A stretch of 59,230 nt of DNA. It comes from an uncultured Pelagibacteraceae bacterium (GTDB lineage: Bacteria > Pseudomonadota > Alphaproteobacteria > Pelagibacterales > Pelagibacteraceae). Position numbers and translations under genes: made by a program. Each line of letters starts with the position of its first letter. Position 1 is the first letter of the stretch. Of the stretch, positions 25,674 to 39,290 are shown in pieces. The notes beneath the pieces were generated by a model. That model had not been told where the DNA came from, made no database searches, and was given only the letters and a program-made list of their open reading frames with translations. Location of the stretch: NCBI GenBank assembly GCA_902582105.1, contig CACHQT010000005.1:1-59230 (forward strand), written 5' to 3'.

Positions 25674-26237
25674 ATGATAGAGAATAACAAAGAAAAAATT
25701 AAAACAAGAATAAAATCTGGAATTCAAAAAAATAGGCAGATTATAAAAGATAAATTTAATAATTTTTTTGAATGGGTTAAAGGTGCAGACCTAGTAAGCT
25801 TGAAAGAATGCAACACAAATGAAGATCCTGTAAGACCCGAGCTAGATAATGAATTTAGAACAAGCTATGGAAGAAAAATTTATGGCGTTCAATATAAAAA
25901 TGAAATTCATGCAATAATGTGTTTTGCATTTACAAACGAAATTCCCAGATCAGTCGATGAATTAGATAAATTAAGCAAAGATGCTTTTTTACAAAGTACT
26001 CTTAGAGGCCAAAAGGTTGGAAAAATAGCTATTGCTTATACAGTTTGGTCTAAAAAAAAAGGAGGAGGTAAACTAATTGTAAAAGAAGTATTTAAAATGA
26101 TTAAAAAATCTAATCATCTTAATAGGCTGGTGACACTGTCTCCTCTAACTGATATGGCAACTAAATTTCATTTAAGAAATAAAGCAAAACTTGTAAGAGT
26201 AAATGAAACGACACAAAACTTTGAATATATAAAATAA
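25674..26237 (+). CDS. GNAT-like protein of unknown function
   Basis: A 187-residue protein. The N-terminal 50 residues are basic and helical; the rest resembles a GNAT acyltransferase fold, with a FAFTNEIPRSVDELD segment, a strand GKIAIAYTVWSKKKGGGKLI in the place of the acetyl-CoA loop, and LSPLTDMATKFHLRNKAKLV, which resembles the C-terminal strand-helix of N-acetyltransferases and of malonyl-CoA decarboxylase. A normal R/Q-x-x-G-x-G/A pyrophosphate loop is not clear, so activity is doubtful. No ribosome-binding site is visible and no partner gene can be named. Confidence 0.5.
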   Translation: MIENNKEKIKTRIKSGIQKNRQIIKDKFNNFFEWVKGADLVSLKECNTNEDPVRPELDNEFRTSYGRKIYGVQYKNEIHAIMCFAFTNEIPRSVDELDKLSKDAFLQSTLRGQKVGKIAIAYTVWSKKKGGGKLIVKEVFKMIKKSNHLNRLVTLSPLTDMATKFHLRNKAKLVRVNETTQNFEYIK

Positions 26238-26245
26238 ATAAACTA

Positions 26246-27826
26246 TTAATTTAATATCAGGTCAGATGCTTTTTCAGCAATCATCAAGGTAGGTGCGTTT
26301 AAGTTTCCACTTGTTATTTCGGGCATAACAGATGCATCTACAACTCTAATATTCTTAAGACCATGAATTTTTAATTCTTGATCTACAACAGCCATTTTAT
26401 CAACTCCCATTTTTAATGTACAGGAAGGATGATATGCAGTTTCAGCTTTAGATCTTATATATTCTTCAAATAACTCATTTGTTTGAACATTGTCACCTGG
26501 ACCAATTTCTTTACCAGCAAAGGGTTTTAAAGAATTTTGACCAAGTATGTTTCGTGCAACGTGTATGCTTTCTATTGTTTGTTTTAGATCGTCCTCGTGT
26601 TCTAGATAATTAAATTGTATTTTTGGATAGTCGTAAGGGTTAGAACTATTTAATGTAACATGCCCTCTACTCTTTGGATGATTTGGACTTGCGTGTAGTT
26701 GATAACCGTGCCTATCAGGCTCAACTAAGCCATGATCAATTACAAATGCCGGAAAAAAATGAAATTGAATATTTGGATATTCTCTTTCTGGAGATGATTT
26801 ACAAAATCCACCAGCTTCTAAAAATGAACTGGAACAAGGACCGCCTTTAGTTAAAAACCATTGAATCCCAACTCTCAACATATTCAATTTATTAATATAA
26901 GAATATAGAGTATCACTGGTTCTACATTCTTGCTGAATGTATGTTTCTAAATGATCTTGTAAATTTTTTCCAACACCATCAAGATTATGAATTACCTCAA
27001 TACCTTTATCTTTTAAATGTGAGGAAGGGCCAACTCCAGAAACCATAAGTAATTGTGGAGAATTTATTGAACCAGCGCTTAATATTACTTCCTTATTTGC
27101 GAACATTTTCTCTTTTTTATTTTTAATTTTGACATCAATACCAATTGCTTTTTTTCCATCAAAAATTATTTTTTCTACAAAGGACTCGCTAAACACTTTC
27201 AAATTTTTCCGTTTTTTAGCTGGATTTAAATAATATTTAGAAATACTTGCTCTTTCACCTTTATGAATTGTTACATCATACATTCCAAATCCTTCTTGAT
27301 CCTTGCCATTCATATCTTGATTAATTTTGTAGCCCGCTTCTCCAGCAGATTTAACAAAAGCATCAAACAAAGGGTTTTTATTTTTTGATTGATTGACTGG
27401 CAGTATTCCTGTTCCACCTCGATATTCATTTTGACCTTCAGACCAAGTTTCAATCTTTTTAAAATACGGCAATACTTTTTCGTACGACCAATCTTTTAAT
27501 CCAAAAGAGGCCCATCTTTGATAATCATTTGGATTACCTCTAACATAAACCATTCCATTATGCGCAGAACACCCACCAATCATTTTTCCTCTAGGGCAAA
27601 AAAGTTTTCTGTTTTTCAAATGTGGTTCTGGTTCAGAGTAATATTTGTAATTATATTTAGGATCATGCATTGTATATAAAATTGCTAGTGGCATATTAAC
27701 TTTCCATATATCGCTTGGTCTACCAGCTTCTATTAAGGCCACATTATATTTTCCATTTGCTGTCAATCTATTTGCAAGCACGCATCCAGCAGTACCTGCT
27801 CCGATTATTATGTAATCAAATTTCAT
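26246..27826 (-). CDS. GMC-family FAD oxidoreductase (choline-dehydrogenase-like)
   Basis: A 526-residue GMC oxidoreductase with the N-terminal FAD motif IIIGAGTAGCVLANRL, ALIEAGRP, the GMC_1 signature GKMIGGCSAHNGMVYVRG, and the GMC_2 block LSAGSINSPQLLMVSGVG. The catalytic His is in AETAYHPSCTLKMG and the Asn partner in SGNLNAPTLMIAEKAS. The family oxidises primary alcohols (choline, PEG, others). It is translationally coupled (ATGA, 27823-27826) to a PhnZ/TmpB-like oxygenase and a TauD-like dioxygenase, so its alcohol substrate may come from, or feed, that pathway. Plain choline dehydrogenase is possible. Confidence 0.88.
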   Translation of the reverse strand: MKFDYIIIGAGTAGCVLANRLTANGKYNVALIEAGRPSDIWKVNMPLAILYTMHDPKYNYKYYSEPEPHLKNRKLFCPRGKMIGGCSAHNGMVYVRGNPNDYQRWASFGLKDWSYEKVLPYFKKIETWSEGQNEYRGGTGILPVNQSKNKNPLFDAFVKSAGEAGYKINQDMNGKDQEGFGMYDVTIHKGERASISKYYLNPAKKRKNLKVFSESFVEKIIFDGKKAIGIDVKIKNKKEKMFANKEVILSAGSINSPQLLMVSGVGPSSHLKDKGIEVIHNLDGVGKNLQDHLETYIQQECRTSDTLYSYINKLNMLRVGIQWFLTKGGPCSSSFLEAGGFCKSSPEREYPNIQFHFFPAFVIDHGLVEPDRHGYQLHASPNHPKSRGHVTLNSSNPYDYPKIQFNYLEHEDDLKQTIESIHVARNILGQNSLKPFAGKEIGPGDNVQTNELFEEYIRSKAETAYHPSCTLKMGVDKMAVVDQELKIHGLKNIRVVDASVMPEITSGNLNAPTLMIAEKASDLILN

Positions 27827-28362
27827 AGAAGTTGAGAATGAAGTAGTTTTTCATATTGATTGATTGATTTCATTTTAATATTAGTTTTTTTTGCTAATTC
27901 ATCAAATTTTCTTAGTTTAACTGCATCTATAAAAAATTTATTTTTTTCAAAATCCTTGCTTTCTTTTTTATTTAGTATTCCACCTTGTAATTCTAAACTA
28001 ATTTTAGAGGCCTTAGATAGTTGATTATAATATTTTTTACTTCTAGCTAAATATCTTTTTGCTTCAACATGATATTTAATAGGCTCAACAACATCTTCTT
28101 TAAAGAATTTCTTTAAATATTCATATCCTATTTCCTCGTGCTTTCCGTCTAATTTCTTTTTAACCAAATCACTAGGGTCTTCCAAAATAAAATGTCCATA
28201 ATCATGAAGTAAGCATGCGCATATCAAACTTTTTGATGATTTTTTTTTCTCAGCTATCATTGCAGCCTGGATCATGTGTTCAGACATAGTTACTTTTTCT
28301 CCGATATATAAAGATTTATTATTTATAAAATTAGAAATAATTTTATAGATTATTTTCATCAA
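27823..28362 (-). CDS. PhnZ/TmpB-like HD-domain mixed-valent diiron oxygenase (C-P bond-cleaving family)
   Basis: The 179-residue HD-domain protein aligns along its whole length with PhnZ, the diiron oxygenase that cleaves 1-hydroxyphosphonates to phosphate and a carbonyl product. The residues reported as important in PhnZ have counterparts: Tyr19 and Glu22 (YIGE lid), iron ligands His29, His53, Asp54, His75, His98 and Asp154, and phosphonate-binding His57, Lys102 and Arg151. The blocks LLHDYGHF, HVEAKRYLARS and LELQGG are also PhnZ-like. TmpB, which acts on trimethylammonio-ethylphosphonate, is in the same family. It is sandwiched between a TauD-type dioxygenase (2-base gap) and a GMC oxidoreductase (4-base overlap). 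Exact substrate unknown. Confidence 0.85.
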   Translation of the reverse strand: MMKIIYKIISNFINNKSLYIGEKVTMSEHMIQAAMIAEKKKSSKSLICACLLHDYGHFILEDPSDLVKKKLDGKHEEIGYEYLKKFFKEDVVEPIKYHVEAKRYLARSKKYYNQLSKASKISLELQGGILNKKESKDFEKNKFFIDAVKLRKFDELAKKTNIKMKSINQYEKLLHSQLL

Positions 28363-28364
28363 TT

Positions 28365-29198
28365 TTAATTTGGACGATCACCTTCGATCGCAATTCGATC
28401 CATAACCCTTTCATGTCCAAGACCTCTTCCTGGATAAAAATCAGCAATAGCAAAGTGAATAACGCTCCTATTATCCCAGATACAAACAGTATTTTCTGTC
28501 CAAGTGAAACGACAAGTTAATTCTAATCTGGCCTGATGTTCAAATATTTTTTTTAAAATCTCATCACTTTCTTTTTTATCTAAACCAATAATGTTTTTTG
28601 TATAAGTCCAATTTACATATAATATTTTTTTCCCGGTCTCTGGATGAGTTCTAACCACGGGATGTTCATTAGAGTATTCATCATAATTTTTTTTTTTATT
28701 ACCTTCCATTTTTTTATAATTATCTAAAAAGAATTCTGCTCCTAATGAACTATGAATAGCAGTTTTGTCTTTTATTTTATCTTTTATATTTTTGTCTAAA
28801 GTTTCCCAAGCAAGTTCCATATTAGAAAAACAGGTATCTCCTCCTACTGGAGGAATTTTAATTGATTTTAATATTACAGCCTTAGTAGGTTTAGCGTTAT
28901 AACTAACATCGCTGTGCCAATTTTCTCCCCACTGGTTTTGTTCATCTTCAGCTTTAATTATTCTAACAATTTCAGGATATTTTTCTAAACCTTTTACATA
29001 CGCATGAGTCTCTAAAGGACCAAATTTTTCTGCAAGGGCTATATGTTCCTCTGCATTAATTAATTGGTCTCTAAAGAAAATTACCTTATGTTCTAATAGT
29101 AAATCGTTAATTTTTTTAAAATTCTCTTCTGATGTATCTTTAAGATTTATACCTTTAATTTCTGCACCCAAAGCACCTGAAAGTAGTTTTATTTCCAT
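28365..29198 (-). CDS. TauD/TfdA-family 2-oxoglutarate-dependent dioxygenase
   Basis: The 277-residue protein is a full-length TauD-family enzyme: GALGAEIKGINL start, VIFFRDQ, the first iron motif NWHSDVSY (His95, Asp97), LPPVGGDT-like IPPVGGDTCFSNM, and the distal His in WDNRSVIHFAIADF with the 2OG-binding Arg in ERVMDRI. TauD releases sulfite from taurine by C1 hydroxylation. Here the partner gene encodes a PhnZ-like oxygenase, so I infer alpha-hydroxylation of a phosphonate. It lacks the N-terminal domain of the gamma-butyrobetaine hydroxylase group, so it is neither TmpA nor the PhyH-type PhnY. It is the first gene of the three-gene operon. Confidence 0.87.
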   Translation of the reverse strand: MEIKLLSGALGAEIKGINLKDTSEENFKKINDLLLEHKVIFFRDQLINAEEHIALAEKFGPLETHAYVKGLEKYPEIVRIIKAEDEQNQWGENWHSDVSYNAKPTKAVILKSIKIPPVGGDTCFSNMELAWETLDKNIKDKIKDKTAIHSSLGAEFFLDNYKKMEGNKKKNYDEYSNEHPVVRTHPETGKKILYVNWTYTKNIIGLDKKESDEILKKIFEHQARLELTCRFTWTENTVCIWDNRSVIHFAIADFYPGRGLGHERVMDRIAIEGDRPN

Positions 29199-29250
29199 TA
29201 ATATAATTTATATCTAGAAATTAATTTTGTCACTATATATAAGGTTGAAT

Positions 29251-29592
29251 ATGAATCTTACGTGGGCATATATACTTTTAGTTTTGGCAATTTTGTTTGA
29301 ATTAATTAGCACAAGCTTTTTAAAAGATACCAATGGCTTTACCAGACTTTACCCTTCGTTGATTGTCGTGATTTCTCTGTGTGTTTGTCTCTACCTTATA
29401 TCTCATACAATGAAAGTTATTCCTGTAGGAATAGTTTACGCCAGTTGGGCTGGGCTAGGTATTGTTGGTATAACAATTATCGCTTCTATTAAATACAATC
29501 AAGTTCCAAACATCCCTACTATAATTGGACTTTTATTTATAGTAATAGGAGTCGTTATTGTTCATTTAATGAATGATATAAAAGTAGATTAA
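29251..29592 (+). CDS. Small multidrug resistance (SMR) family quaternary-cation transporter
   Basis: Starting at ATG 29251 gives a 113-residue, four-helix SMR protein; the TTG at 29227 would add eight residues not found in the family. The essential membrane Glu is Glu17 in AILFELISTSFLK, followed by NGFTRLYPS; helix 3 reads VIPVGIVYASWAGLGIVGI. These features resemble the Qac/EmrE subtype more than the guanidinium (Gdx/SugE) subtype. EmrE-type proteins exchange protons for quaternary ammonium compounds, including betaine and choline. It is divergent from the TauD operon and convergent with the thioesterase gene, inside a quaternary-amine island. Confidence 0.85.
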   Translation: MNLTWAYILLVLAILFELISTSFLKDTNGFTRLYPSLIVVISLCVCLYLISHTMKVIPVGIVYASWAGLGIVGITIIASIKYNQVPNIPTIIGLLFIVIGVVIVHLMNDIKVD

Positions 29593-29595
29593 TAA

Positions 29596-30066
29596 TTATT
29601 TTTTTAATTTTGATGAAAATTTTAAGTCTTTATTATTAAAATCACTTTTATTTTTTTCAATATAATCATTCATTATTTTAATTTTTTCATCTTCGAATTC
29701 AAAAACTTTTCTTTGACTCAAATCAACATATAAAGCTAAAATTTCTATAGTAGATGCAAGATATTTTTTTTCTTTATGGATCATTTCCATTTTATATAAA
29801 AGCCTTTTTTTATCGTGATCAAAAAAAGTTAAATTAACATCTACTTCATCTCCCTCGCTTACCTCTTGATTGTAAGTAATGTGAGACTCTACCACCATAG
29901 TGCTCTTTTTAGTTGTCTTTGCAGAATGTTCTCCCATTTTAAATTTACTCATTAAAACTTCAGCACCATGAACATCAAAAATCAAGACATAATACGCAAC
30001 ATTCATGTGATTATTATAGTCTGTCCATTCTCTTATAATTTTTTGAGTTGTTAGATGTACCGACAT
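29596..30066 (-). CDS. 4-hydroxybenzoyl-CoA-type thioesterase, probable betainyl-CoA thioesterase
   Basis: A 156-residue hot-dog thioesterase with the catalytic block DYNNHMNVAYYVLIFD (Asp in DxNxHM) and the usual long helix. A divergent BKACE gene begins 50 bases away. In Pseudomonas carnitine catabolism, the thioesterase CdhB releases glycine betaine from betainyl-CoA formed by the BKACE enzyme CdhC; the pair here suggests the same job. The substrate is inferred from context only. Confidence 0.78.
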   Translation of the reverse strand: MSVHLTTQKIIREWTDYNNHMNVAYYVLIFDVHGAEVLMSKFKMGEHSAKTTKKSTMVVESHITYNQEVSEGDEVDVNLTFFDHDKKRLLYKMEMIHKEKKYLASTIEILALYVDLSQRKVFEFEDEKIKIMNDYIEKNKSDFNNKDLKFSSKLKK

Positions 30067-30115: not shown

Positions 30116-31003
30116 ATGAACAATAAAGTATTTATATCTTGTGCAGTAACTGGTTCTGGAGATACAGCCAGCAAGCATCCTGATTTACCTAAGACTCCAG
30201 AGCAAATTGCAAAGGCTTCAATTGAAGCAGCCAAAGCAGGTGCTGCGATTGCACACATTCATGTTAGAGAGGAAGATGGAAAGCCAAGCAGAAGATTAGA
30301 ATTATATAAAGAGGTTGTTGATCGTGTAAGATCAAGCGACACAGATGTAGTTTTAAATTTAACAACAGGAATGGGGGGAGATTTAGATATAGGACAAGGA
30401 AAAAATCCTCTAGATTTTGGCCCAATGACAGATATGGCAAATGTAATGGAAAGAATTGCAAATGCAGAACAGTTTTTACCCGAGATATGCACATTGGATT
30501 GTGGAACTTTAAATTTTGGTGATAGTTCAGTTATTACAGTTAATACACCAAATGATTTAAGAAAAGCTGCTAAAAGATTACAAGAAATAAATGTCAAGCC
30601 AGAAATAGAAGCTTTCGATTTAGGAAATATGTGGTTTGGGGCTCAATTATATAAAGAAGGATTGCTAAGTGATCCACCAATGTTTCAAATGTGTTTAGGT
30701 ATTCCATGGGGGGCGCCTGCAACACCTTTAGCTATGCAGGCTATGAAAGATATAATGCCCAAGGAAGGTATATGGTCTGGTTTTGCAATTTCAAAAAATG
30801 AAATGCCATTTGTTGCTCAAACTGTAATTATGGGAGGTAATCCAAGAGTGGGCCTTGAAGATAATCTATATTTAGAGAGAGGAAAGTTGGCAACAAATGC
30901 TCAACTAGTTGAAAAAGCAATTAGAATTGTTAATGACCTCGGTGTTTCAATAATGACTCCTGCAGAAACTAGGGAAAAACTTAAATTAAAAAATTACAAA
31001 TAA
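30116..31003 (+). CDS. Beta-keto acid cleavage enzyme (BKACE), probable 3-dehydrocarnitine-cleaving
   Basis: The 295-residue TIM-barrel protein belongs to the BKACE (DUF849) family: SCAVTGSGDT at the start, the zinc-binding AHIHVRE (His47, His49), NLTTGMGG, GTLNFG, FDLGNMW and VGLEDNLY (metal-coordinating Glu). BKACEs transfer acetyl-CoA onto a beta-keto acid and release acetoacetate and a new acyl-CoA. With the divergent thioesterase and the betaine transporter, 3-dehydrocarnitine is the best candidate substrate, yielding betainyl-CoA. Other BKACE substrates such as 3-keto-5-aminohexanoate remain possible. Confidence 0.85.
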   Translation: MNNKVFISCAVTGSGDTASKHPDLPKTPEQIAKASIEAAKAGAAIAHIHVREEDGKPSRRLELYKEVVDRVRSSDTDVVLNLTTGMGGDLDIGQGKNPLDFGPMTDMANVMERIANAEQFLPEICTLDCGTLNFGDSSVITVNTPNDLRKAAKRLQEINVKPEIEAFDLGNMWFGAQLYKEGLLSDPPMFQMCLGIPWGAPATPLAMQAMKDIMPKEGIWSGFAISKNEMPFVAQTVIMGGNPRVGLEDNLYLERGKLATNAQLVEKAIRIVNDLGVSIMTPAETREKLKLKNYK

Positions 31004-31006
31004 AAT

Positions 31007-31795
31007 TTAATCTAATCTAATAGCGTTACCATCAACCGCTATAGTTTGACCAGATATTCTTTCTCCATCATTTGAAATTAAAAAGGAACATGTTTTTGCT
31101 ATATCCTCTTCATAAATCCAACAATTCATTGATGCCATAGATACAAATTCTTTTTCTATATTTTTTTTAGAAATATTCAAAAAATTTGCTTTATCTCTAA
31201 TAACTCTTACCATTCTATCACCTTTAATAGTTCCAGGACAAATTGCATTAACTCGTATTTTAAATTTACCAAGTTCCATCGCTAGAGTTTTTGTTACACC
31301 TATTACCGCCCATTTACTTGCAGCATAAGGGGATCTTAGAGGAAAACCCATTATACCTGCACCAGAAGAAAGATTAATTATTGATCCACCCTTATTTTTT
31401 TTAAGCATTGGTATAGCCAATTTTGAAAAATAAAAATGGCTTATAACATTTATTTTTAAAGTTTTTTCCCAATCATCAGACTCAAGTTTTTCTAAATTGC
31501 CAGTAGGCCCAGCAACACCAACATTATTAATTAATGCATCTATTTTTTTTGTTTTCTTTTTTATTTCAAAAAAAAAATTTGAAACATCATACTCATTAGA
31601 TGCATCACATACATATGCAAATAATCTCTTATTTTTTAAAGGATGTTTTTTTAATTTAGTAATATACTTTTCATTTAAGTCACAAAGGTAAACTGTTGCT
31701 CCTCTTGAAAGACAAACTTTTGCTGTGGCAAGACCAATTCCAGATGCACCAGCAGATATGATTATTTTTTTATTCTTAAGGGACTGATTATCCAT
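31007..31795 (-). CDS. Short-chain dehydrogenase/reductase
   Basis: A 262-residue classical SDR. The cofactor motif is ISAGASGIGLA with the acidic residue in YLCDLNEK (NAD preference), NNVGVAG, catalytic Ser in NLSSGAGI and Tyr-x-x-x-Lys in YAASKWA. It is convergent with the BKACE gene (three-base gap) and directly upstream-adjacent to proV on the same strand (three bases). It may oxidise carnitine or another hydroxy-acid to the beta-keto acid used by BKACE; the usual carnitine dehydrogenase is a hydroxyacyl-CoA-dehydrogenase-like protein that I do not find nearby. Confidence 0.88.
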   Translation of the reverse strand: MDNQSLKNKKIIISAGASGIGLATAKVCLSRGATVYLCDLNEKYITKLKKHPLKNKRLFAYVCDASNEYDVSNFFFEIKKKTKKIDALINNVGVAGPTGNLEKLESDDWEKTLKINVISHFYFSKLAIPMLKKNKGGSIINLSSGAGIMGFPLRSPYAASKWAVIGVTKTLAMELGKFKIRVNAICPGTIKGDRMVRVIRDKANFLNISKKNIEKEFVSMASMNCWIYEEDIAKTCSFLISNDGERISGQTIAVDGNAIRLD

Positions 31796-31798
31796 TAA

Positions 31799-32824
31799 CT
31801 ATGACTTAGTTAAAGATTTTTGTAATTCTTTGTTTGTAATATATCCTTTAACATTTCCTTGTTTGTCAATCACTTCACAATTTGCATTATTGCAAACAAC
31901 CTGAGGTAAAAATTCTTCAATAAATTGATCTTCTTGTACTTTAACAAGGTTTGTTTTATCAACACCGTTGGCTTCACTTGCTGGTTTCATTATAATTTTT
32001 GCTTTGATAACTTTCGCTCTATTAACATCTTTTACGAAAGCGGTCACATAATCATCGGCTGGGTTCATTATAATATCAACAGGTGTACCTACTTGAACTA
32101 ATTTTCCACCATTTAAAATTCCTATATGATCACCCAATCTCAAGGATTCATCTAAATCATGTGTTATAAAAACTATTGTTTTTTTTAGTTCGCTTTGTAA
32201 ATCCATTAATTGTTTTTGCATGTCACTTCTAATAAGAGGATCTAATGCAGAAAATGCTTCATCCATTAACATTATATCTGTATTTGTAGCTAAAGCTCTT
32301 GCTAAGCCTACTCTTTGCTGCATTCCTCCAGATAATTGATTTGGATATTGATGTTCAAATCCATTTAAACCAACTGCTTCAATTTTTTCCATTGCAGTTT
32401 TGTTTCTTTCTTCTGGTTTTTGACCTTGAACTTCAAGGCCATATCCAACATTTTCTAAAACTGTTTTGTGTGGAAACAAACCAAATCTTTGAAACACCAT
32501 ACTCATTTTATGTCTTCTGAACTCAATTAATTGTTTTTGATCAAGATTCATAACATTTGTTCCCTCGACAGAAACTTCTCCTGATGTTGGGTCTATTAAT
32601 CTATTAATATGACGAATAAGCGTAGATTTTCCTGAACCAGATAAGCCCATACAAACAAAGGTTTCTCCTTCTTCGATAGACAAAGATACATTATCTAAAC
32701 CAATAGTGTGTCCTGTTTTTTCTAATACTTCCTCTTTTGTTGCGCCATCTTTAACCATTGGAAGTACTTTTGAAGGCTGATCACCAAATATTTTATAAAC
32801 GTTTTTTATTTCAATTTTGCTCAT
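31799..32824 (-). CDS. proV: Glycine betaine/proline-type ABC transporter ATPase ProV
   Basis: The 341-residue ATPase has the ProV/OpuAA N-terminal extension before Walker A (GLSGSGKST), the Q-loop VFQRFGLFPHKTVLENV, signature LSGGMQQRVGLARALA, Walker B IMLMDEAFSALDPL and a C-terminal tail with part of a CBS-like segment ending in CNNANCEVIDKQGN. The DEAFSALDPL form is diagnostic of quaternary-amine ATPases. The order on the minus strand is proX, hairpin, proW, proV, followed by an SDR gene. Confidence 0.92.
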   Translation of the reverse strand: MSKIEIKNVYKIFGDQPSKVLPMVKDGATKEEVLEKTGHTIGLDNVSLSIEEGETFVCMGLSGSGKSTLIRHINRLIDPTSGEVSVEGTNVMNLDQKQLIEFRRHKMSMVFQRFGLFPHKTVLENVGYGLEVQGQKPEERNKTAMEKIEAVGLNGFEHQYPNQLSGGMQQRVGLARALATNTDIMLMDEAFSALDPLIRSDMQKQLMDLQSELKKTIVFITHDLDESLRLGDHIGILNGGKLVQVGTPVDIIMNPADDYVTAFVKDVNRAKVIKAKIIMKPASEANGVDKTNLVKVQEDQFIEEFLPQVVCNNANCEVIDKQGNVKGYITNKELQKSLTKS

Positions 32825-32831
32825 ATTTTTT

Positions 32832-33848
32832 TTATAAAATTAATTTTTTTTTGTTGTGTGTTCTTGCTTGAATTTTTTCACCATAAGATTGTGTAATTCG
32901 ATCGAATATAATAGCTAGCAATACAATTGCAATACCTGCTTCTGTAGCCATACCAACGTTTAATTGTTGTAAACCAAGCAATACTTCATCACCAATTCCT
33001 CTTGTGCCTATCATTGATGCAATTACTACCATTGCTAATGACATCATTGTACATTGGTTGACACCTTGCATTATGTTGGGTAATGCTAAGGGCAATTGTA
33101 CTCCCCATAATTTTTGTTTTTTACTTGCACCAAAAGCTTCTGCTGCTTCAACAACTTCTTTATCAACCAATCTAATTCCAAGGTCTGTTAATCTTATTAA
33201 AGGAGGAACAGCATAAACAAATATGGCAAATATTGCTGGGACTGCACCCAAACCAAATAATAATATTCCTGGAATTAAATAACAAAAACTAGGAATAGTT
33301 TGCATTAAATCTAAAATCGGTAGTATAGCATTTCTTACTTTTTTGTTCCTTGCCATTAAAATTCCTACAGGAATACCAATAATTAGACAAAGCAACATTC
33401 CTATAACTACTATACAAGTTGTCATTATACATTTATCCCAATATCTAGGACTTAGAAAACCAAGAAAGAAAACACAAAATGCAACCATAATTGTTGTACC
33501 AGTATTTCTTCCACTTACAAAATAACATAAAGCAATTACCGATATCATTAATATTGGCCAAGGTAATCCAACCATAAAATTTTTCATATCTGTATAAAGG
33601 CCAAGTAGGAAATTATTAATTCCTTCAAAAAACATTCCATATTCTCTTATAAGCTTATCAAATCCATCATTTAAGAAGGGCATTAATGGAAGGTCTAGCC
33701 ATTTAGGCCAGTTTCCTAACCATGAAAAATCTGTAAATAAAACTGAAACACTCTCAGGTCTATATTTTGAGGTCGTGTACGCAACAACAACCATAGCAAT
33801 AAAGGCTATTAAATAAACTAAATTGAAATATTTTTTATACTTCTCCAT
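32832..33848 (-). CDS. proW: Glycine betaine/proline-type ABC transporter permease ProW
   Basis: A 338-residue permease with an N-terminal amphipathic/loop region and about seven membrane helices. PFCYLIPG-like PSFCYLIPGILLFGLGAVPA and the EAA-loop EVVEAAEAFGASKKQKLWGVQLPLA are conserved in ProW/OpuAB. NQCTMMSLAMVVIASMIGTRGIG follows. It forms the membrane domain for ProX/ProV. It starts 13 bases beyond the hairpin that follows proX. Confidence 0.92.
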   Translation of the reverse strand: MEKYKKYFNLVYLIAFIAMVVVAYTTSKYRPESVSVLFTDFSWLGNWPKWLDLPLMPFLNDGFDKLIREYGMFFEGINNFLLGLYTDMKNFMVGLPWPILMISVIALCYFVSGRNTGTTIMVAFCVFFLGFLSPRYWDKCIMTTCIVVIGMLLCLIIGIPVGILMARNKKVRNAILPILDLMQTIPSFCYLIPGILLFGLGAVPAIFAIFVYAVPPLIRLTDLGIRLVDKEVVEAAEAFGASKKQKLWGVQLPLALPNIMQGVNQCTMMSLAMVVIASMIGTRGIGDEVLLGLQQLNVGMATEAGIAIVLLAIIFDRITQSYGEKIQARTHNKKKLIL

Positions 33849-33860
33849 TAATACTTCCCT

Positions 33861-33891
33861 AAAAAAGCTAAGAGCCCTCGCGGGCTCTTAG
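33861..33891 (-). terminator. Intrinsic terminator/attenuator between proX and proW
   Basis: CTAAGAGCCC (33868-33877) and GGGCTCTTAG (33882-33891) form a 10-bp stem with a 4-base loop. On the minus strand the stem is followed by C and six T residues (33866-33861). It lies after the proX stop and before proW, so it should favour binding-protein mRNA. Confidence 0.88.
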
Positions 33892-33911
33892 TTTTAAAAT
33901 TTATTTTAAAA

Positions 33912-34937
33912 TTAAAGCGAAGCTTTAACTTTTTTTGCTACGTCTGCAGGAACCCATTTTGTCCAAGAGCTAGACCCTTGTAAAAAGTTCTTAGCAGTTG
34001 CTTCCATATCTCCACCTGATTCATCCATGTAAAAAGCAAGAGATTTGTTCACTTCAGCAGTCGGCAAAGTGTATGCTTTTACAAAGTCAATAACTGGTTT
34101 ATTTGCTGGATTATTAGCAAAAGTAGTTGATGCAGATTTTGTCAAAGCCATATCTACATATGCACTTGCACAAGTTTTTGTGTATGCATCTGGGCCATCA
34201 GCTTTAATCTTCTCAACAACAGCCATCATTTCTGTCCAGCATTTATTTTCATAAGCGGGTTCTTTAAGTTGAACTAAATCAACTTTTCCCATTAAACCTG
34301 TTGGTGTCCAGTAGTAAGAAAATACTGGCTTCCCTTTTTTAAATGCACCCGCAATAGCTGCATCTAAAGCACCACCAGAACCTGGATCAAAGTTAGTATA
34401 GTATTTATCTAGACCGTAAACTTTGTGCTTAACTAAGTTAATAGTGTAGCAAGTCCATCCAGAAATACAGCTTGTCATTCTACCTTTTCCTGGAGCCTCT
34501 GGATCAGCAAATAATTTTGCGATTTCTGGTTTCATCATGTCTTCAACACTTACTAAACCATATTTGTCTGCTGTTGGTTTATCTACATAAAATCCTTGTG
34601 TAGATGATGGAGTGTTAACTCCCAGCTCAACAATTTTGCCTGCTGCTACAGCTTCTTCATGCATTTGAACAATATTATCTCTCCAAACTTCAGTTATAAT
34701 ATCAAGCTGTTGATCATAATGAGCAGCCATAATTGGACTAGTACTACCTTTTGTAACTTCAACCTGACAGCCATATCCTTTTTCAAGAATATAACCAACG
34801 ATTGCAGTGTGAACGTTCGCACTATCCCAGTCAAAATCTCCCAAGTGTACTTTGCAAGCAGCATTAGCACTTGTTGTGCTCAATGATGTTACTGCTATAA
34901 AAGCAATTGAAAGAAATATTTTCTTTAGAAATCTCAT
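33912..34937 (-). CDS. proX: Glycine betaine/proline-type periplasmic binding protein ProX
   Basis: A 341-residue OpuAC-type binding protein with a signal peptide (1-26, ending SANA). Features are DFDWDSANVHTAIVGYILE, GSTSPIMAAH, TEVWRDN, the IGSGGGALDAA-like block PGSGGALDAAIAGAF and FSYYWTPTGLMGK; aromatic residues here form the quaternary-ammonium cage in the family. It should bind glycine betaine or a related trimethylammonium compound. The start has an AAGGGGGA ribosome-binding site, the strongest in the neighbourhood, with a palindrome directly upstream. Confidence 0.91.
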   Translation of the reverse strand: MRFLKKIFLSIAFIAVTSLSTTSANAACKVHLGDFDWDSANVHTAIVGYILEKGYGCQVEVTKGSTSPIMAAHYDQQLDIITEVWRDNIVQMHEEAVAAGKIVELGVNTPSSTQGFYVDKPTADKYGLVSVEDMMKPEIAKLFADPEAPGKGRMTSCISGWTCYTINLVKHKVYGLDKYYTNFDPGSGGALDAAIAGAFKKGKPVFSYYWTPTGLMGKVDLVQLKEPAYENKCWTEMMAVVEKIKADGPDAYTKTCASAYVDMALTKSASTTFANNPANKPVIDFVKAYTLPTAEVNKSLAFYMDESGGDMEATAKNFLQGSSSWTKWVPADVAKKVKASL

Positions 34938-35114: not shown

Positions 35115-36248
35115 ATGGCAGTAGAAATTTCAAAAGTTTCAAAAAATGGTTCAGCATTAAATATTGAGTGGAGCGATGGAGAAAAAAGTAATTTTAATTT
35201 TTTATGGCTAAGAGACAATTGTCCGACTGCACACGATAAAGACTCTAGACATAGAATGTTTAATATACTTGAGGTTTCAACAAATATTGAACCAAAGACA
35301 TACAAAGTAAACAACGATGGAAAATTAGAAATAGCTTGGAGCGAAGGAAACCATACCAGTTTATATGAACAAGAATGGCTCAGAAAAAATTGTTATACTA
35401 TAAATAATAATAAAAAGTATGTTTCTCCTTATCAATTATGGGATAGCTCTTTACAAGAAAATTTAAAATTTATTAGCATCGAACATGATGAAATCTTAAA
35501 TTCAGACGAAGGTCTTATTAAATGGTTAGAACTTTTACATTATAAAGGGATTGCAATTGTAAAAAATACACCTGTTGAAAAAGAGTCTGCATTCCCAGTT
35601 TTAAATAGAATAAGTCATACAAGGGAAACTTTTTTCAAAACACCTTTTGAGGTTATAAATGTTCCAAAACCAAATAATTCAGCATATACGGCGCATGCTC
35701 TTAGAAATCATATGGATTTACCATGGTTTGAAAATCCTCCAGGATATCAATTTCTTCATTGCTTAATAAACTCTGCAGAAGGGGGAAATTCTTCAGCTGT
35801 AGACGCATTTAAAGTTGCTGATTACTTAAGGAAAAATGAAAAAGAAATTTTTGAAACCTTAACTAATGTACCTCTTAAATTTAGAGATAAAGATTATACA
35901 CAAGACGCACATAGAAGTTTTTATGGTACAGCAATTTCTTTAACAAAAGATGGAGACTATAATGACATTAGATTTAGCGTAGCTACTATGGACGCATTAG
36001 ATTGCCACCCTGATATTATGGATAAAGTTTATAAAGCTCATCATAGGTTTGGTAATCTTTTACATGACGATCAATTTCAAATAAAATTTAGACTTCAGCC
36101 AGGAGATATTTTTTCATTTAACAATAGAAGAGTTTTACATGGCAGAACAGAATTTAACCCAAGTTCAGGCTACAGACATTTACAAGGTTATTATATGGAT
36201 AGAGACGAAATTATTGGAAGGTTAAGTTTTTTAAAAAATAAACTATAA
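35115..36248 (+). CDS. Gamma-butyrobetaine-hydroxylase-like 2OG/Fe(II) oxygenase (GBBH/TmpA group)
   Basis: The 377-residue protein has the two-domain layout of gamma-butyrobetaine hydroxylase: a DUF971-like N-terminal domain (1-95, FLWLRDNCPTAHD) and a TauD-fold domain with the iron motif in RNHMDLPWF, FLHCLIN, and RVLHGRTEF followed by RHLQGYYMDRDEI. The N-terminal domain has only one of the Cys that bind zinc in the animal enzyme. GBBH makes carnitine from gamma-butyrobetaine; TmpA, a family member, hydroxylates trimethylammonio-ethylphosphonate. Context (ProXWV, BKACE, thioesterase) supports a trimethylammonium substrate. It overlaps the convergent diesterase gene by six bases. Confidence 0.87.
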   Translation: MAVEISKVSKNGSALNIEWSDGEKSNFNFLWLRDNCPTAHDKDSRHRMFNILEVSTNIEPKTYKVNNDGKLEIAWSEGNHTSLYEQEWLRKNCYTINNNKKYVSPYQLWDSSLQENLKFISIEHDEILNSDEGLIKWLELLHYKGIAIVKNTPVEKESAFPVLNRISHTRETFFKTPFEVINVPKPNNSAYTAHALRNHMDLPWFENPPGYQFLHCLINSAEGGNSSAVDAFKVADYLRKNEKEIFETLTNVPLKFRDKDYTQDAHRSFYGTAISLTKDGDYNDIRFSVATMDALDCHPDIMDKVYKAHHRFGNLLHDDQFQIKFRLQPGDIFSFNNRRVLHGRTEFNPSSGYRHLQGYYMDRDEIIGRLSFLKNKL

Positions 36249-36887
36249 GTTTTCAAAAATAAGATTTCTATTTTTATATTTATTTCTTATCTCTTTACTT
36301 CTGGCAGTATAATAGTAAATTGGTTTTTTGATAATATTTAATTTTTTTTTTTGTAAAAATTTTTTTTCCATAACAAGAATATTTACATATTTTAATCTAC
36401 TCTTTTTTATTATTTTTTGAACAGAACTAGTTGATGCAAAACATAATCCTAGAATAACTTTTTTTTTTAATTTATAAAAATTTTTAATATTATTCTCATT
36501 AAATGAGGTAATGCTAAAAAATTTGAGCTTTTTAGTTTGTTCAATCAATTTAGATAAATGTTCTTTTGAGAAAGAGGATTTAATTTCCAGCATTAAGTAA
36601 TGCTTATTTTTTGCAATATTTATTAATTCTTTTAATTCAGGAATATAATATCCAAATTTTTTCGCAATTTTATTGATTTCATTAAAACTAAGATTTTTTA
36701 TTAATTTATTTATCTTAAATTTTCTTTTTAAATTAAAATCATGAAAACATATTATTTTACCATCTTTTGTGACATGTAAATCTGTTTCAATACCAAATTT
36801 TTTTTTAAAACAATATCTAAAAGCTGGAAGAGTGTTTTCTTTAAATCTTTTTTTAGCTAATCCCCTGTGAATTATTGAATGGGACAT
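36243..36887 (-). CDS. Glycerophosphodiester phosphodiesterase (GDPD family)
   Basis: A 214-residue GDPD TIM-barrel protein, near the short end for the family. Catalytic blocks are IIHRGLA (His), KENTLPAF, GIETDLHVTKDG (Glu, Asp) and CFHDFNLKRK (second His); LMLEIKS carries the third acidic residue. It has no signal peptide, so it acts in the cytoplasm on imported or lipid-derived glycerophosphodiesters. Release of choline from glycerophosphocholine would connect to the betaine genes next door. It is very Lys/Ile/Asn-rich, like other weakly expressed genes here. Confidence 0.83.
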   Translation of the reverse strand: MSHSIIHRGLAKKRFKENTLPAFRYCFKKKFGIETDLHVTKDGKIICFHDFNLKRKFKINKLIKNLSFNEINKIAKKFGYYIPELKELINIAKNKHYLMLEIKSSFSKEHLSKLIEQTKKLKFFSITSFNENNIKNFYKLKKKVILGLCFASTSSVQKIIKKSRLKYVNILVMEKKFLQKKKLNIIKKPIYYYTARSKEIRNKYKNRNLIFENL

Positions 36888-36896
36888 TGTATATTA

Positions 36897-38327
36897 TTAC
36901 TTCCAACCAGTAATCGTTTTTACCTCAAGATATTCTTCCAACCCCCAATTACCACCTTCACGTCCATTTCCAGATTGTCTATATCCTCCAAAAGGAGTGC
37001 CGGGGTCTGCACCATTGCCATTAATATATACACATCCAGATCTTAATTTTTTAGCAACTCTTTTTGCTTTTTCTTTATCTTCTGTTTGCAGATAATTGCC
37101 AAGACCGTATTCAGTTTCATTTGTAATTGATATTGCCTCTTCTTCTGTTTCAAATGGAATTATTGAAAGAACTGGCCCAAAAATTTCTTTTTTAGCTATC
37201 TGCATAGTATTTGTAACATCTGTGAATATAGTTGGTTTTATAAAATAACCTTTCTCTAAACCACTTGGTAGCTCTGGACCGCCTGCAGCAAGTGTTGCTC
37301 CTTCATTTATACCGTCTTTAATCAAATTAATTATTTTATCGTATTGAACTTTTGAAACTACTGGTCCTATATGATCTCCTTTTTTTGATGCAACATTTAC
37401 TTTAATTTTATTAGCCTCATCCGTTGCTTCTTCAACAGCTCTTTTATATATAGATTTTTCTACAAGCATTCTTGTTGGAGCGTCGCATGATTGTCCAGAA
37501 TTGCTCATTACATTTCTAATACCATCTCTTACCGCATCAGGGTAGGAGTCAGCAAAAACAATATTTCCACCTTTACCACCTAACTCTAAACAAACTCTTT
37601 TAATTGTGTCGGCAGCATTTTTTGTAATTAATTTTCCAGCTCTTGTTGAGCCAGTAAAAGAAACCATATCGATATCAGGATGACCAGATATTTGTGTTCC
37701 AACTCCAGCTCCATCTCCATTTACTAAATTAAAAACTCCTGCAGGAAAACCTGCTTCATCTATCATTTCTGCGAACAACATTGCCGAGATAGGAGCTATT
37801 TCAGATGGCTTGAGTATCATTGTGCAACCTGTTGCAAAAGCAGGAATTACTTTTAAAGCTATTTGATTAATTGGCCAATTCCAAGGAGTAATTAAACCAC
37901 ATACTCCTATTGGTTCAAGAGTTATATGATTATTAGACTTAGAGTTAAAATTTTCTTCAAACTTGAATTCTTTTAATCTTAATATGAAGTCTTCCAAATG
38001 AGCTTGTCCTGATGCTGTATGTGTTGATGTTGCAAAATCAATAGGAGACCCCATCTCATTTGACATAGCTTCAGCCATCTCGTTAAATCTTTTTTTATAA
38101 ATATTGAGTAGTTTTTCCAAAAGAATTATTTTTTCTTCTTTTGAGGTTTCTTTCCAGATAACAAATGCATTTTTTGCTGCTTTTACTGCAGCGTCAGTAT
38201 CTTCTTTAGAGCCCTGGGAAATGATTGCAAAGGCTTCTTCGTTAGAAGGATTAATTACTTTTAAGTCATTTGGCTTAGTAGGTTTAACCCATTTACCGTT
38301 TATATAAAAATTTCTTTTATCAATCAT
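36897..38327 (-). CDS. Aldehyde dehydrogenase (NAD(P)-dependent)
   Basis: The 476-residue protein is a complete aldehyde dehydrogenase: ITPWNWPINQ, LKPSEIAP, FTGSTRAGK, general-base Glu in CLELGGKGG, nucleophilic Cys in NSGQSCDAPTRM and KEIFGPVLSI. Relatives act on betaine aldehyde, succinic semialdehyde and similar short aldehydes. It lies between the GDPD and the hydroxyisobutyrate-dehydrogenase-like genes on the minus strand, next to quaternary-amine and ectoine genes. Candidate roles are oxidation of betaine aldehyde or of the semialdehyde formed in ectoine breakdown; neither is proven. Confidence 0.88.
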   Translation of the reverse strand: MIDKRNFYINGKWVKPTKPNDLKVINPSNEEAFAIISQGSKEDTDAAVKAAKNAFVIWKETSKEEKIILLEKLLNIYKKRFNEMAEAMSNEMGSPIDFATSTHTASGQAHLEDFILRLKEFKFEENFNSKSNNHITLEPIGVCGLITPWNWPINQIALKVIPAFATGCTMILKPSEIAPISAMLFAEMIDEAGFPAGVFNLVNGDGAGVGTQISGHPDIDMVSFTGSTRAGKLITKNAADTIKRVCLELGGKGGNIVFADSYPDAVRDGIRNVMSNSGQSCDAPTRMLVEKSIYKRAVEEATDEANKIKVNVASKKGDHIGPVVSKVQYDKIINLIKDGINEGATLAAGGPELPSGLEKGYFIKPTIFTDVTNTMQIAKKEIFGPVLSIIPFETEEEAISITNETEYGLGNYLQTEDKEKAKRVAKKLRSGCVYINGNGADPGTPFGGYRQSGNGREGGNWGLEEYLEVKTITGWK

Positions 38328-38348: not shown

Positions 38349-39290
38349 TTAAATTTCATATCCTTTTTCTTCTTTTTCATTATCAGTTAATTCATCAGGA
38401 AATCCTGAAGCTCTAAATTTTAGGCCAAATTTATCTTCAAGTCTTTTAACTACCATGGATGACCAAGCTCTAGAACCATATTTTTTTTGTGCATCTTTAA
38501 ATATATCTAATACGAACGGTGATATTTCTAAAGGTGTATTAAGTTTTTTTGAAAGTTGATTAAAAAGGTTCATATCTTTTTGTACTAAATCCATTGTAAA
38601 ATTAATATTATAAGATCCATTTAAGATTACCTGACTTTCAGTTTCATGAACAAAGGAGTTTCCTGAAGAAACAGCAATTCCTTTAAAAGTTTTATTAAGA
38701 TTTAATTTAGATTTTTTAGCTACTGTCCATGCTTCACCAAGGGCAGCCAAATGTACAGAAGCTAGATAGTTTGTAATTACTTTTAAAATAGAAGCTGTTC
38801 CCAGCTCTCCAGTATGAAGGATTTTCCTACCCATAGTAGTTAAAACTGGTAAAATTTTTTCGAAACTTGTTCTTTCACCACCAACAAAAATAGCGATGTT
38901 TCCTGTTGCCGCTCTGTGACATCCACCACTAACTGGACCATCTAAAGGAATAGCTTCCTTATTTGAAACTAGCTTACCTAACCTCTTGACCTCAGACTCA
39001 TCAGTTGTACTCATTTCTAACCATATCTTATCTTTTGATAAACCATGAATTACGCCATCTTTAGATTCCATTACATCCGCGCATATTTCAGGCGATGGGA
39101 GACAAGTTATAATTAAATCTGTTTGTTCAGCTAATTCTTTAGCACTATTTGCTATCTTCGAGCCTTTGTTTTTAAATTTATCTGTTAAGTTTTTATCTAA
39201 ATCTCTTACAGTTAAATCAAACTTATTTCTCAATAAACTGCTTGCTAATTTGCCTCCAACATTTCCAAGTCCTATAAATCCTATTTTCAT
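38349..39290 (-). CDS. 3-hydroxyisobutyrate-dehydrogenase-like (beta-hydroxyacid) dehydrogenase
   Basis: A 313-residue beta-hydroxyacid dehydrogenase: Rossmann motif KIGFIGLGNVGGKLA, LITCLPSP, substrate loop DGPVSGGCHRAATGN, and the catalytic Lys in ASILKVITNYLAS. The NAD-binding residue after beta-2 is VRDLD, favouring NAD. The family oxidises 3-hydroxyisobutyrate, tartronate semialdehyde, glyoxylate and related acids. The gene is divergent from eutA with a 58-base gap and could act downstream of the neighbouring aldehyde dehydrogenase. Confidence 0.87.
   Translation of the reverse strand: MKIGFIGLGNVGGKLASSLLRNKFDLTVRDLDKNLTDKFKNKGSKIANSAKELAEQTDLIITCLPSPEICADVMESKDGVIHGLSKDKIWLEMSTTDESEVKRLGKLVSNKEAIPLDGPVSGGCHRAATGNIAIFVGGERTSFEKILPVLTTMGRKILHTGELGTASILKVITNYLASVHLAALGEAWTVAKKSKLNLNKTFKGIAVSSGNSFVHETESQVILNGSYNINFTMDLVQKDMNLFNQLSKKLNTPLEISPFVLDIFKDAQKKYGSRAWSSMVVKRLEDKFGLKFRASGFPDELTDNEKEEKGYEI

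What the first reader, a model, noticed from the sequence alone, without database searches (positions are those of the whole stretch)
26246..29198. TauD dioxygenase + PhnZ/TmpB-like HD oxygenase + GMC oxidoreductase: candidate new organophosphonate pathway
The three genes are coupled (2-base gap, then 4-base overlap). The HD protein keeps every PhnZ residue I can recall: Tyr19/Glu22 lid, His29, His53, Asp54, His75, His98, Asp154 iron ligands and His57, Lys102, Arg151 phosphonate contacts. Known partners of these enzymes are PhyH-type (PhnY, PhnY*) or GBBH-type (TmpA) hydroxylases; here the partner is a short TauD-type enzyme, and a GMC alcohol oxidase is added. A plausible scheme is alpha-hydroxylation of a phosphonate, C-P cleavage to phosphate plus aldehyde or acid, and alcohol oxidation before or after. 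The substrate would be a phosphonate not covered by the known pairs.
Basis: partly seen in the sequence, partly recalled or inferred. Interest (0 to 1): 0.82.

Follow-up and report, generated by a model that had tools for sequence, protein, structure and literature searches.

The report
SAR11 betaine island with phosphonate oxygenase
In a common ocean bacterium, a gene for an iron enzyme of the kind that breaks carbon-phosphorus bonds sits between two genes of a gene island that seems to turn carnitine, choline and related compounds into glycine betaine; the three genes look like interchangeable feeder modules and not like one new pathway.

Summary
On the minus strand lie a TauD-type dioxygenase (28365-29198), a PhnZ/TmpB-type HD protein (27823-28362) and a GMC oxidoreductase (26246-27826), tightly coupled. 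In 197 genomes of the window's family (SAR11), the GMC gene (BetA-like choline dehydrogenase) occurs in 37: 16 with TauD and GMC-linked HD, 10 with TauD but no GMC-linked HD, 2 with HD only, 7 with neither, 2 with a TmpA-adjacent HD. Of 80 named loci, 24 have TauD-GMC with no HD. The main TauD pocket residues do not depend on HD. The genes lie in an island for carnitine/choline/glycine-betaine use published in 2025; its main text never mentions phosphonate. Two SAR11 relatives of the HD (58 and 63% identical) sit beside TmpA genes. Best reading: HD releases phosphate and glycine betaine from a hydroxylated trimethylammonium phosphonate, in parallel with choline and carnitine routes. The three-enzyme single pathway is not supported. 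Whether TauD or a TmpA relative elsewhere makes the HD substrate is open.

The parts
28365..29198 (-). TauD-type Fe(II)/2OG dioxygenase, 277 aa; Fe ligands H95, D97, H248; 2OG R264; anion dyad H65/R268; W90/G91/V68 in place of E. coli TauD D94/N95/Y73
   Evidence: roles of E. coli residues from PMC9304159 passages, R266 as 2OG contact recalled
27823..28362 (-). PhnZ/TmpB-class HD-domain oxygenase, 178-179 aa; likely ATG start at 28359
26246..27826 (-). GMC oxidoreductase, BetA-like choline dehydrogenase (PRK02106 736 bits, cut-off 605; betA TIGR01810 671, cut-off 732)
29227..29592 (+). small multidrug resistance (SMR) transporter, island gene
29596..30066 (-). 4HBT-type thioesterase, CdhB-like (its only NCBIfam match is the thioesterase end of carnitine 3-dehydrogenase NF005716, 50 bits)
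   Evidence: CdhB role recalled
30116..31003 (+). [quoted passage not shown]
31007..31795 (-). SDR oxidoreductase
31799..34937 (-). ProV/ProW/ProX-type quaternary amine ABC transporter (three ORFs; ProW named from position and sequence only, not scanned)
35115..36248 (+). gamma-butyrobetaine dioxygenase (BBOX/GBBH): TIGR02409 319 bits against TmpA 273 bits, both under their cut-offs
36243..36887 (-). glycerophosphodiester phosphodiesterase
36897..38327 (-). aldehyde dehydrogenase, best match betaine-aldehyde dehydrogenase model (416 bits, cut-off 668.6)
38349..39290 (-). 3-hydroxyisobutyrate-dehydrogenase-like protein; in G082, G073 and G122 a TmpA gene lies next to this gene

Best explanation
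The three genes are modules of a SAR11 gene island that funnels trimethylammonium compounds into glycine betaine. The HD protein is a mixed-valent di-iron oxygenase of the PhnZ/TmpB class that cleaves the C-P bond of a 1-hydroxyphosphonate, most likely (R)-1-hydroxy-2-(trimethylammonio)ethylphosphonate, to phosphate plus glycine betaine. GMC oxidises choline (and perhaps betaine aldehyde) towards glycine betaine. TauD hydroxylates the carbon next to an acidic group of a related zwitterion; whether that is the phosphonate (feeding HD) or a sulfonate or sulfate ester (falling apart to betaine aldehyde without HD) is not settled. Shown: gene identity, coupling, conserved active-site residues, purifying selection, island context, and that the modules come and go separately. 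Inferred: all substrates and reactions.
For: Of 14 active-site positions checked, the window HD matches TmpB at 14 and PhnZ at 13. Two SAR11 HDs 58 and 63% identical to it lie beside TmpA proteins scoring 542 and 532 bits against a cut-off of 400. In G073, G092, G116 and G122 a TmpA over cut-off is present and the only strong PhnZ-class HD found in the genome is the GMC-linked one. Outside SAR11, TmpA, HD, a second GBBH/TmpA-type gene and BKACE stand together in L106 and L187, both of one family. Island: GBBH, BKACE, CdhB-like thioesterase, ProVWX and, in relatives, carnitine dehydrogenase, homocysteine-methyltransferase-like and GcvT/sarcosine-oxidase-like genes. The mBio 2025 paper PMC12421898 (section 7 read) describes this island with choline dehydrogenase, carnitine dehydrogenase, BBOX and BKACE. 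Modules separable; HD status changes at least 4 times and TauD adjacency at least 2 on the GMC tree. TauD keeps the His/Arg anion dyad and has W/G/V for the amine contacts in 99 of 99 sequences compared, with or without HD.
Against: No enzyme was assayed. HD is below the curated cut-offs of all three phosphonate models; the two SAR11 HDs beside TmpA are below the TmpB cut-off too (154 and 157 of 300). The HD tree does not group it with TmpB; the deepest split is unresolved (12/1 support). Holding the SAR11 HDs together with all 31 TmpA-linked rows is rejected (AU p 0.0001); with 19 rows close to TmpB it is not (p 0.20). TauD does associate with HD among GMC genomes (16 of 26 against 2 of 11, Fisher p 0.03, not corrected for relatedness), which favours a TauD-HD step. 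Some TauD positions outside the ones I took as pocket differ in frequency between HD-positive and HD-negative operons, most of all A102; without a structure I cannot say whether any of them matters. The four TmpA genomes are only 55-76% complete, so a separate TmpB could be missing. One search for trimethylaminoethylphosphonate names showed me no paper on it as a measured seawater compound.
Confidence: 0.5

Rival explanations
1. TauD is a second, unrelated solution to TmpA: it hydroxylates trimethylaminoethylphosphonate (or a methylated aminoethylphosphonate) and HD cleaves the product; GMC is an independent neighbour.
For: TauD lies 2-9 bases upstream of HD in 13 of 18 GMC-linked loci including the window, with partial TauD at the contig edge in 2 more, and next to HD in 55 of 80 named loci. 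H65/R268 anion dyad and W90 suit an anionic quaternary amine (inference). 16 of 18 HD-GMC genomes hold TauD.
Against: TauD stands without a GMC-linked HD in 10 of 26 TauD+GMC genomes (3 of the 10 have another kind of HD elsewhere) and 24 of 80 named loci, with the same main pocket residues; where no PhnZ-class HD exists the hydroxyphosphonate would be a dead end. HD stands without TauD in G069 and G123 (99 and 97% complete).
Confidence: 0.25
2. One reading: TauD, HD and GMC form one pathway for a phosphonate not covered by known pairs, GMC oxidising an alcohol before or after C-P cleavage.
For: Tight coupling; HD-GMC 4-base overlap in the window and 17 of 17 GMC-linked relatives.
Against: GMC occurs without TauD and without a strong HD in 7 of 37 genomes and with TauD but no GMC-linked HD in 10; it is a choline-dehydrogenase relative inside a betaine island.
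Confidence: 0.08
3. The HD substrate is made in trans by a GBBH/TmpA-type enzyme (TmpA or the TmpA-like protein at L091:6887-7990 of this genome), and TauD has an unrelated role.
For: 17 of 18 HD-GMC genomes hold TmpA (4) or the TmpA-like protein (13); two HD relatives sit beside TmpA.
Against: The TmpA-like protein is in 62 of 197 genomes, 49 of them without a GMC-linked HD, and tracks another HD family in 61 of 62, so it probably has its own partner.
Confidence: 0.2
4. The HD protein acts on a non-phosphonate alpha-hydroxy quaternary amine of the carnitine route.
For: No phosphonate transporter or C-P bond gene besides HD was recognised among the 20 proteins scanned between 18.4 and 41.3 kb.
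Against: H57, K102 and R151, the phosphonate contacts, are invariant in all 18; the HD2 family that lacks them shows what relaxation looks like.
Confidence: 0.1

Closest known systems
TmpA/TmpB pathway (Leisingera caerulea; trimethylaminoethylphosphonate to glycine betaine plus phosphate)
   Same: HD protein of the same class, best solved-structure match; shared metal, lid and phosphonate residues; glycine-betaine context
   Different: partner here is a 277-aa TauD-type enzyme without the GBBH N-terminal domain; HD under the TmpB cut-off and not placed in the TmpB clade; a choline-dehydrogenase gene is attached
PhnY/PhnZ (aminoethylphosphonate) and PhnY*/PhnZ1 (methylphosphonate)
   Same: same HD oxygenase class and same hydroxylate-then-cleave logic if TauD feeds HD
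   Different: hydroxylase there is PhyH-type (recalled); PhnZ1 model score lower (128 bits)
Arctic SAR11 glycine-betaine genomic island (PMC12421898, mBio 2025)
   Same: L139 and L140 show the same genes in the order of its Fig 5 legend from BKACE on (BKACE, class II aldolase, thioesterase, SMR, dioxygenase, CHDH, DMT); its BBOX(2), by position, is this TauD and its CHDH this GMC
   Different: the 17 genes named in that legend include no HD protein and the main text never says phosphonate; the region has 17-20 genes and its table S4 was not seen, so an unlisted HD cannot be excluded
E. coli TauD taurine dioxygenase
   Same: fold family, Fe and 2OG residues, sulfonate-binding His70/Arg270 equivalents
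   Different: amine-positioning Asp94/Asn95 and Tyr73 replaced by Trp/Gly/Val; below the TauD equivalog cut-off (223.5 of 313)

Membership tests
PhnZ/TmpB class of HD-domain mixed-valent di-iron oxygenases | H...HD...H...H...D metal ligands | tested here: met
   H29, H53, D54, H75, H98, D154
PhnZ/TmpB class of HD-domain mixed-valent di-iron oxygenases | YxxE lid | tested here: met
   Y19, E22; 18 of 18; feature described in PMC8177086 passages
PhnZ/TmpB class of HD-domain mixed-valent di-iron oxygenases | phosphonate contacts (His62, Lys108, Arg158 in PhnZ; roles recalled) | tested here: met
   H57, K102, R151
PhnZ/TmpB class of HD-domain mixed-valent di-iron oxygenases | curated model score (TIGR03276, cut-off 214.6) | tested here: not met
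   174.7 bits; 0 of 197 family genomes has a match over the cut-off
TmpB equivalog | score over 300 on NF049941 | tested here: not met
   156.9 bits; the two TmpA-adjacent SAR11 HDs score 157 and 154
TmpB equivalog | in one clade with L. caerulea TmpB | tested here: inconclusive
   free tree separates them, deepest split unresolved; AU p 0.20 with 19 rows close to TmpB, 0.0001 with all 31 TmpA-linked rows
TmpB equivalog | cleaves hydroxy-TMAEP to glycine betaine and phosphate | not testable with these tools
   needs enzyme assay
TauD taurine dioxygenase | HxD...H, 2OG Arg and sulfonate His/Arg | tested here: met
   H95, D97, H248, R264, H65, R268
TauD taurine dioxygenase | amine contacts Asp94, Asn95, Tyr73 | tested here: not met
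   W90, G91, V68 in 99 of 99
TauD taurine dioxygenase | equivalog score over 313 on NF007104 | tested here: not met
   223.5 bits
BetA choline dehydrogenase | subfamily model PRK02106 over 605 | tested here: met
   736 bits; the genome's other GMC scores 589.5
BetA choline dehydrogenase | equivalog TIGR01810 over 732 | tested here: not met
   671 bits

The most novel reading that the evidence does not exclude
One SAR11 operon handles the trimethylammonioethyl group whatever it carries: choline (OH) by GMC, taurine betaine (sulfonate) by TauD alone because the hydroxylated sulfonate falls apart, and the phosphonate analogue by the same TauD plus HD because the hydroxylated phosphonate is stable and needs the di-iron oxygenase. 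All end in glycine betaine, with sulfite or phosphate as by-product. This would be a new hydroxylase class for PhnZ/TmpB enzymes and a shared sulfur/phosphorus entry into betaine metabolism.
Probability: 0.25. Interest if true: 0.75.

Novelty: new variant of a known kind. Interest (0 to 1): 0.5.

Why it matters
SAR11 is described as the most abundant heterotrophic group of the surface ocean (abstract of PMC12636525). If the HD enzyme works as inferred, a published glycine-betaine island also releases phosphate from a quaternary-amine phosphonate, which ties phosphonate use to osmolyte and one-carbon metabolism and not only to phosphate starvation. It also matters for counting: surveys that score any phnZ-like gene as aminoethylphosphonate use would misread these genes (a review, PMC10574752, passages seen, reports phnZ estimates from under 1% to about 20% of genomes).

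Tried and rejected
Considered and rejected: (1) GMC as a phosphonate-pathway alcohol oxidase: rejected because GMC occurs without TauD or HD and matches choline dehydrogenase. (2) HD as an ordinary HD phosphohydrolase: rejected on residues and structure matches. (3) The window GBBH (35115-36248) as a TmpA: best solved-structure match is TmpA, but the BBOX model scores higher (319 against 273), so I call it GBBH. (4) Placing HD by tree: unresolved. (5) A difference in the main TauD pocket residues between HD-positive and HD-negative operons: looked for; 19 of the 25 positions listed are invariant in all 99 sequences, the other six (93, 160, 197, 201, 250, 252) vary, 160 and 197 in different proportions.

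Full report
Observation. Domain and family searches agree with the three names. HD scores 174.7 bits on the Phn-HD model, 156.9 on TmpB and 128.2 on PhnZ1, each below its cut-off, and its best solved relatives are TmpB and PhnZ. dN/dS is 0.04-0.10 over six pairs from the three genes.

Where it comes from. The window is contig 5 of a 0.95-Mb, 76% complete genome. The 80 named records with the closest TauD (74-99% identical) are all Pelagibacteraceae, Pelagibacterales or Pelagibacter (SAR11), so I take the genome as SAR11.

Relatives in the family. Of 197 genomes, 26 hold a strong PhnZ-class HD; 73 hold a weak match, taken as a different HD family (17 sequences of it checked). I fetched the surroundings of 25 strong hits besides the window and called genes. 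In 17 of these 25 and in the window the HD gene overlaps a GMC gene by 4 bases. TauD stands 2-9 bases upstream in 12 of these 17 and in the window; in 2 more a partial TauD lies at the contig edge. In L047 and L050 the gene upstream is the thioesterase; in L048 it is a 589-aa protein and TauD lies 3.4 kb away. The other 8 HDs differ: 3 (46-47% identical) stand in an unrelated place; 2 are divergent from a TmpA over the cut-off (L034 and L039: 542 and 532 bits); L037 lies near a TmpA-like gene; L049 and L053 have no such neighbour.

Modules come and go. Searches for TauD and GMC in the same 197 genomes give 28 with TauD (partial copies included) and 37 with GMC. Among the 37: TauD plus GMC-linked HD 16 (in G104 TauD is not adjacent), HD without TauD 2 (G069, G123), TauD without GMC-linked HD 10 (G035, G057 and G166 have another kind of HD elsewhere), neither 7, and 2 with a TmpA-adjacent HD and no TauD. 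Eight genomes have TauD and no strong HD at all. In 9 of the 10 TauD-only genomes TauD adjoins GMC (in G178 they are apart). A second set, 80 named loci found through TauD, shows 53 TauD-HD-GMC, 2 TauD-HD at a contig end, 24 TauD-GMC with no HD, 1 cut off. On a GMC tree of 28 rows (27 island GMCs and the other GMC of the window's genome; quick method) HD status changes at least 4 times and TauD adjacency at least 2, L048 counted as lacking it. Of 25 TauD positions listed around the active site, 19 are invariant in 66 HD-positive and 33 HD-negative sequences (some genomes counted twice); six vary in one or both sets, and positions outside the list, A102 first, differ more in frequency. So TauD has a use without HD, GMC without both, and HD sometimes without TauD. 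In favour of a TauD-HD link, HD is commoner where TauD is present (16 of 26 against 2 of 11, p 0.03, uncorrected).

The island. Beside the three genes lie an SMR transporter, a thioesterase, BKACE, an SDR, ProVWX, GBBH, GDPD and an aldehyde dehydrogenase; relatives add carnitine dehydrogenase (362.8 bits, cut-off 414) and, in some, homocysteine-methyltransferase-like and GcvT/sarcosine-oxidase-like proteins, which I labelled BHMT- and DMGDH-like. BKACE plus CdhB-like thioesterase plus carnitine dehydrogenase is the known carnitine route to glycine betaine (pathway recalled). A 2025 paper (PMC12421898; section 7 read, and passages) reports this island in 8 of 16 Arctic SAR11 cultures with choline dehydrogenase, carnitine dehydrogenase, BBOX, BKACE and a second BBOX placed between SMR and choline dehydrogenase. 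By position that second BBOX is this TauD. The 17 genes named in its Fig 5 legend include no HD; the region has 17-20 genes and its table S4 was not seen. The word phosphonate does not occur in the main text. The loci here show HD present or absent between those two genes.

What HD probably cleaves. Two SAR11 HDs, 58 and 63% identical to it, flank TmpA genes; four genomes (G073, G092, G116, G122; 55-76% complete) have TmpA over the cut-off and only the GMC-linked HD as a strong PhnZ-class protein. Outside SAR11, I examined the best 85 of 104 listed non-window HD matches in 385 class genomes: 28 stand within 500 bases of a GBBH/TmpA-type gene, 1 of a PhyH-type gene, 56 of none of these queries, and none beside TauD or GMC; 2, both in G559, have a weak TauD match 2 kb away (for 13 of the 85 only 1.5 kb of flank or less was held; PhyH was sought with one query only). 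A phylum sample adds 0 of 28 with TauD (6 of the 28 already counted; 1.5 kb flank). Two class loci of one family join TmpA-HD to a second GBBH/TmpA-type gene and BKACE (L106, L187). A tree of 117 rows (113 different) puts the GMC-linked HDs in one clade (99/91) within a SAR11 clade (100/99). Its nearest rows are HDs beside a PhyH-type gene (L095, 88/92, flagged as a possible false join of long branches) and PhnW (L094, 86/89); TmpB lies elsewhere, but the deepest split has support 12/1. Holding SAR11 HDs with 19 rows close to TmpB is not rejected (p 0.20); with all 31 TmpA-linked rows it is (p 0.0001). So class membership is firm and substrate is inferred from context.

What TauD may do. It keeps the Fe and 2OG residues and the His/Arg pair that holds taurine in E. 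coli TauD, and has Trp, Gly and Val where E. coli has Asp94, Asn95 and Tyr73 (roles of these residues from passages of PMC9304159). That suits a zwitterion with a bulky quaternary amine; it is inference. TauD without HD points to a substrate whose hydroxylation product falls apart, such as taurine betaine or choline sulfate; TauD with HD allows the phosphonate analogue as well.

Verdict. A real, conserved variant of a published island, with a PhnZ/TmpB-class enzyme as an optional module; I found no description of it in the held papers (searches). It is not shown to be a new three-enzyme phosphonate pathway.

Noticed in passing
L037:10824-12475; own genome L091:6887-7990; L180, L181, L183: A second HD family (HD2, about 184 aa) and a TmpA-like GBBH protein (324-352 bits on the TmpA model) co-occur in SAR11: 61 of 62 genomes with the TmpA-like protein have HD2 (the exception is the window's own incomplete genome); of 73 with HD2, 12 lack the TmpA-like protein, 4 of these holding TmpA instead. 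They are adjacent in some genomes. HD2 keeps all six metal ligands in 17 of 17 but lacks the lid and the phosphonate contacts (K to Q, R to E, His62 in a gap). Presence was judged from weak model matches. Possibly a new di-iron oxygenase pair acting on a non-phosphonate.
   Followed up: partly
L091:6887-8850 (G000 contig 3): The window's genome carries the TmpA-like protein directly followed by a DMT-type permease; the same kind of permease adjoins or lies near TmpA or HD in L034, L037, L039, L053, L180, L181 and L183.
   Followed up: partly
L031:14296, L032:8954, L033:9411: A different SAR11 HD (46-47% identical to the window HD) stands alone between a small ArsC/phosphatase-like gene and an MFS-type permease, with no hydroxylase recognised beside it (gene types judged by eye).
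   Followed up: no
L106, L187: In two non-SAR11 Alphaproteobacteria of one family TmpA, HD, a second GBBH/TmpA-type gene and BKACE form one cluster, tying phosphonate cleavage to carnitine use.
   Followed up: no
L059/L095: An HD 49% identical to the window HD sits between a PhyH-type gene and a citrate-lyase-beta-like gene (types judged by eye); a CitE-like gene is also among the three nearest matched genes upstream of TauD in 16 of 80 SAR11 loci.
   Followed up: no
L038:844-1670 (G073): TauD of this genome reads as two pieces in different frames with internal stops; either a sequencing error or a decaying copy beside intact HD and GMC.
   Followed up: no
window 25674-26237: 187-aa protein with a sub-threshold match to the malonyl-CoA decarboxylase C-terminal domain, found beside GMC in some relatives.
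   Followed up: no
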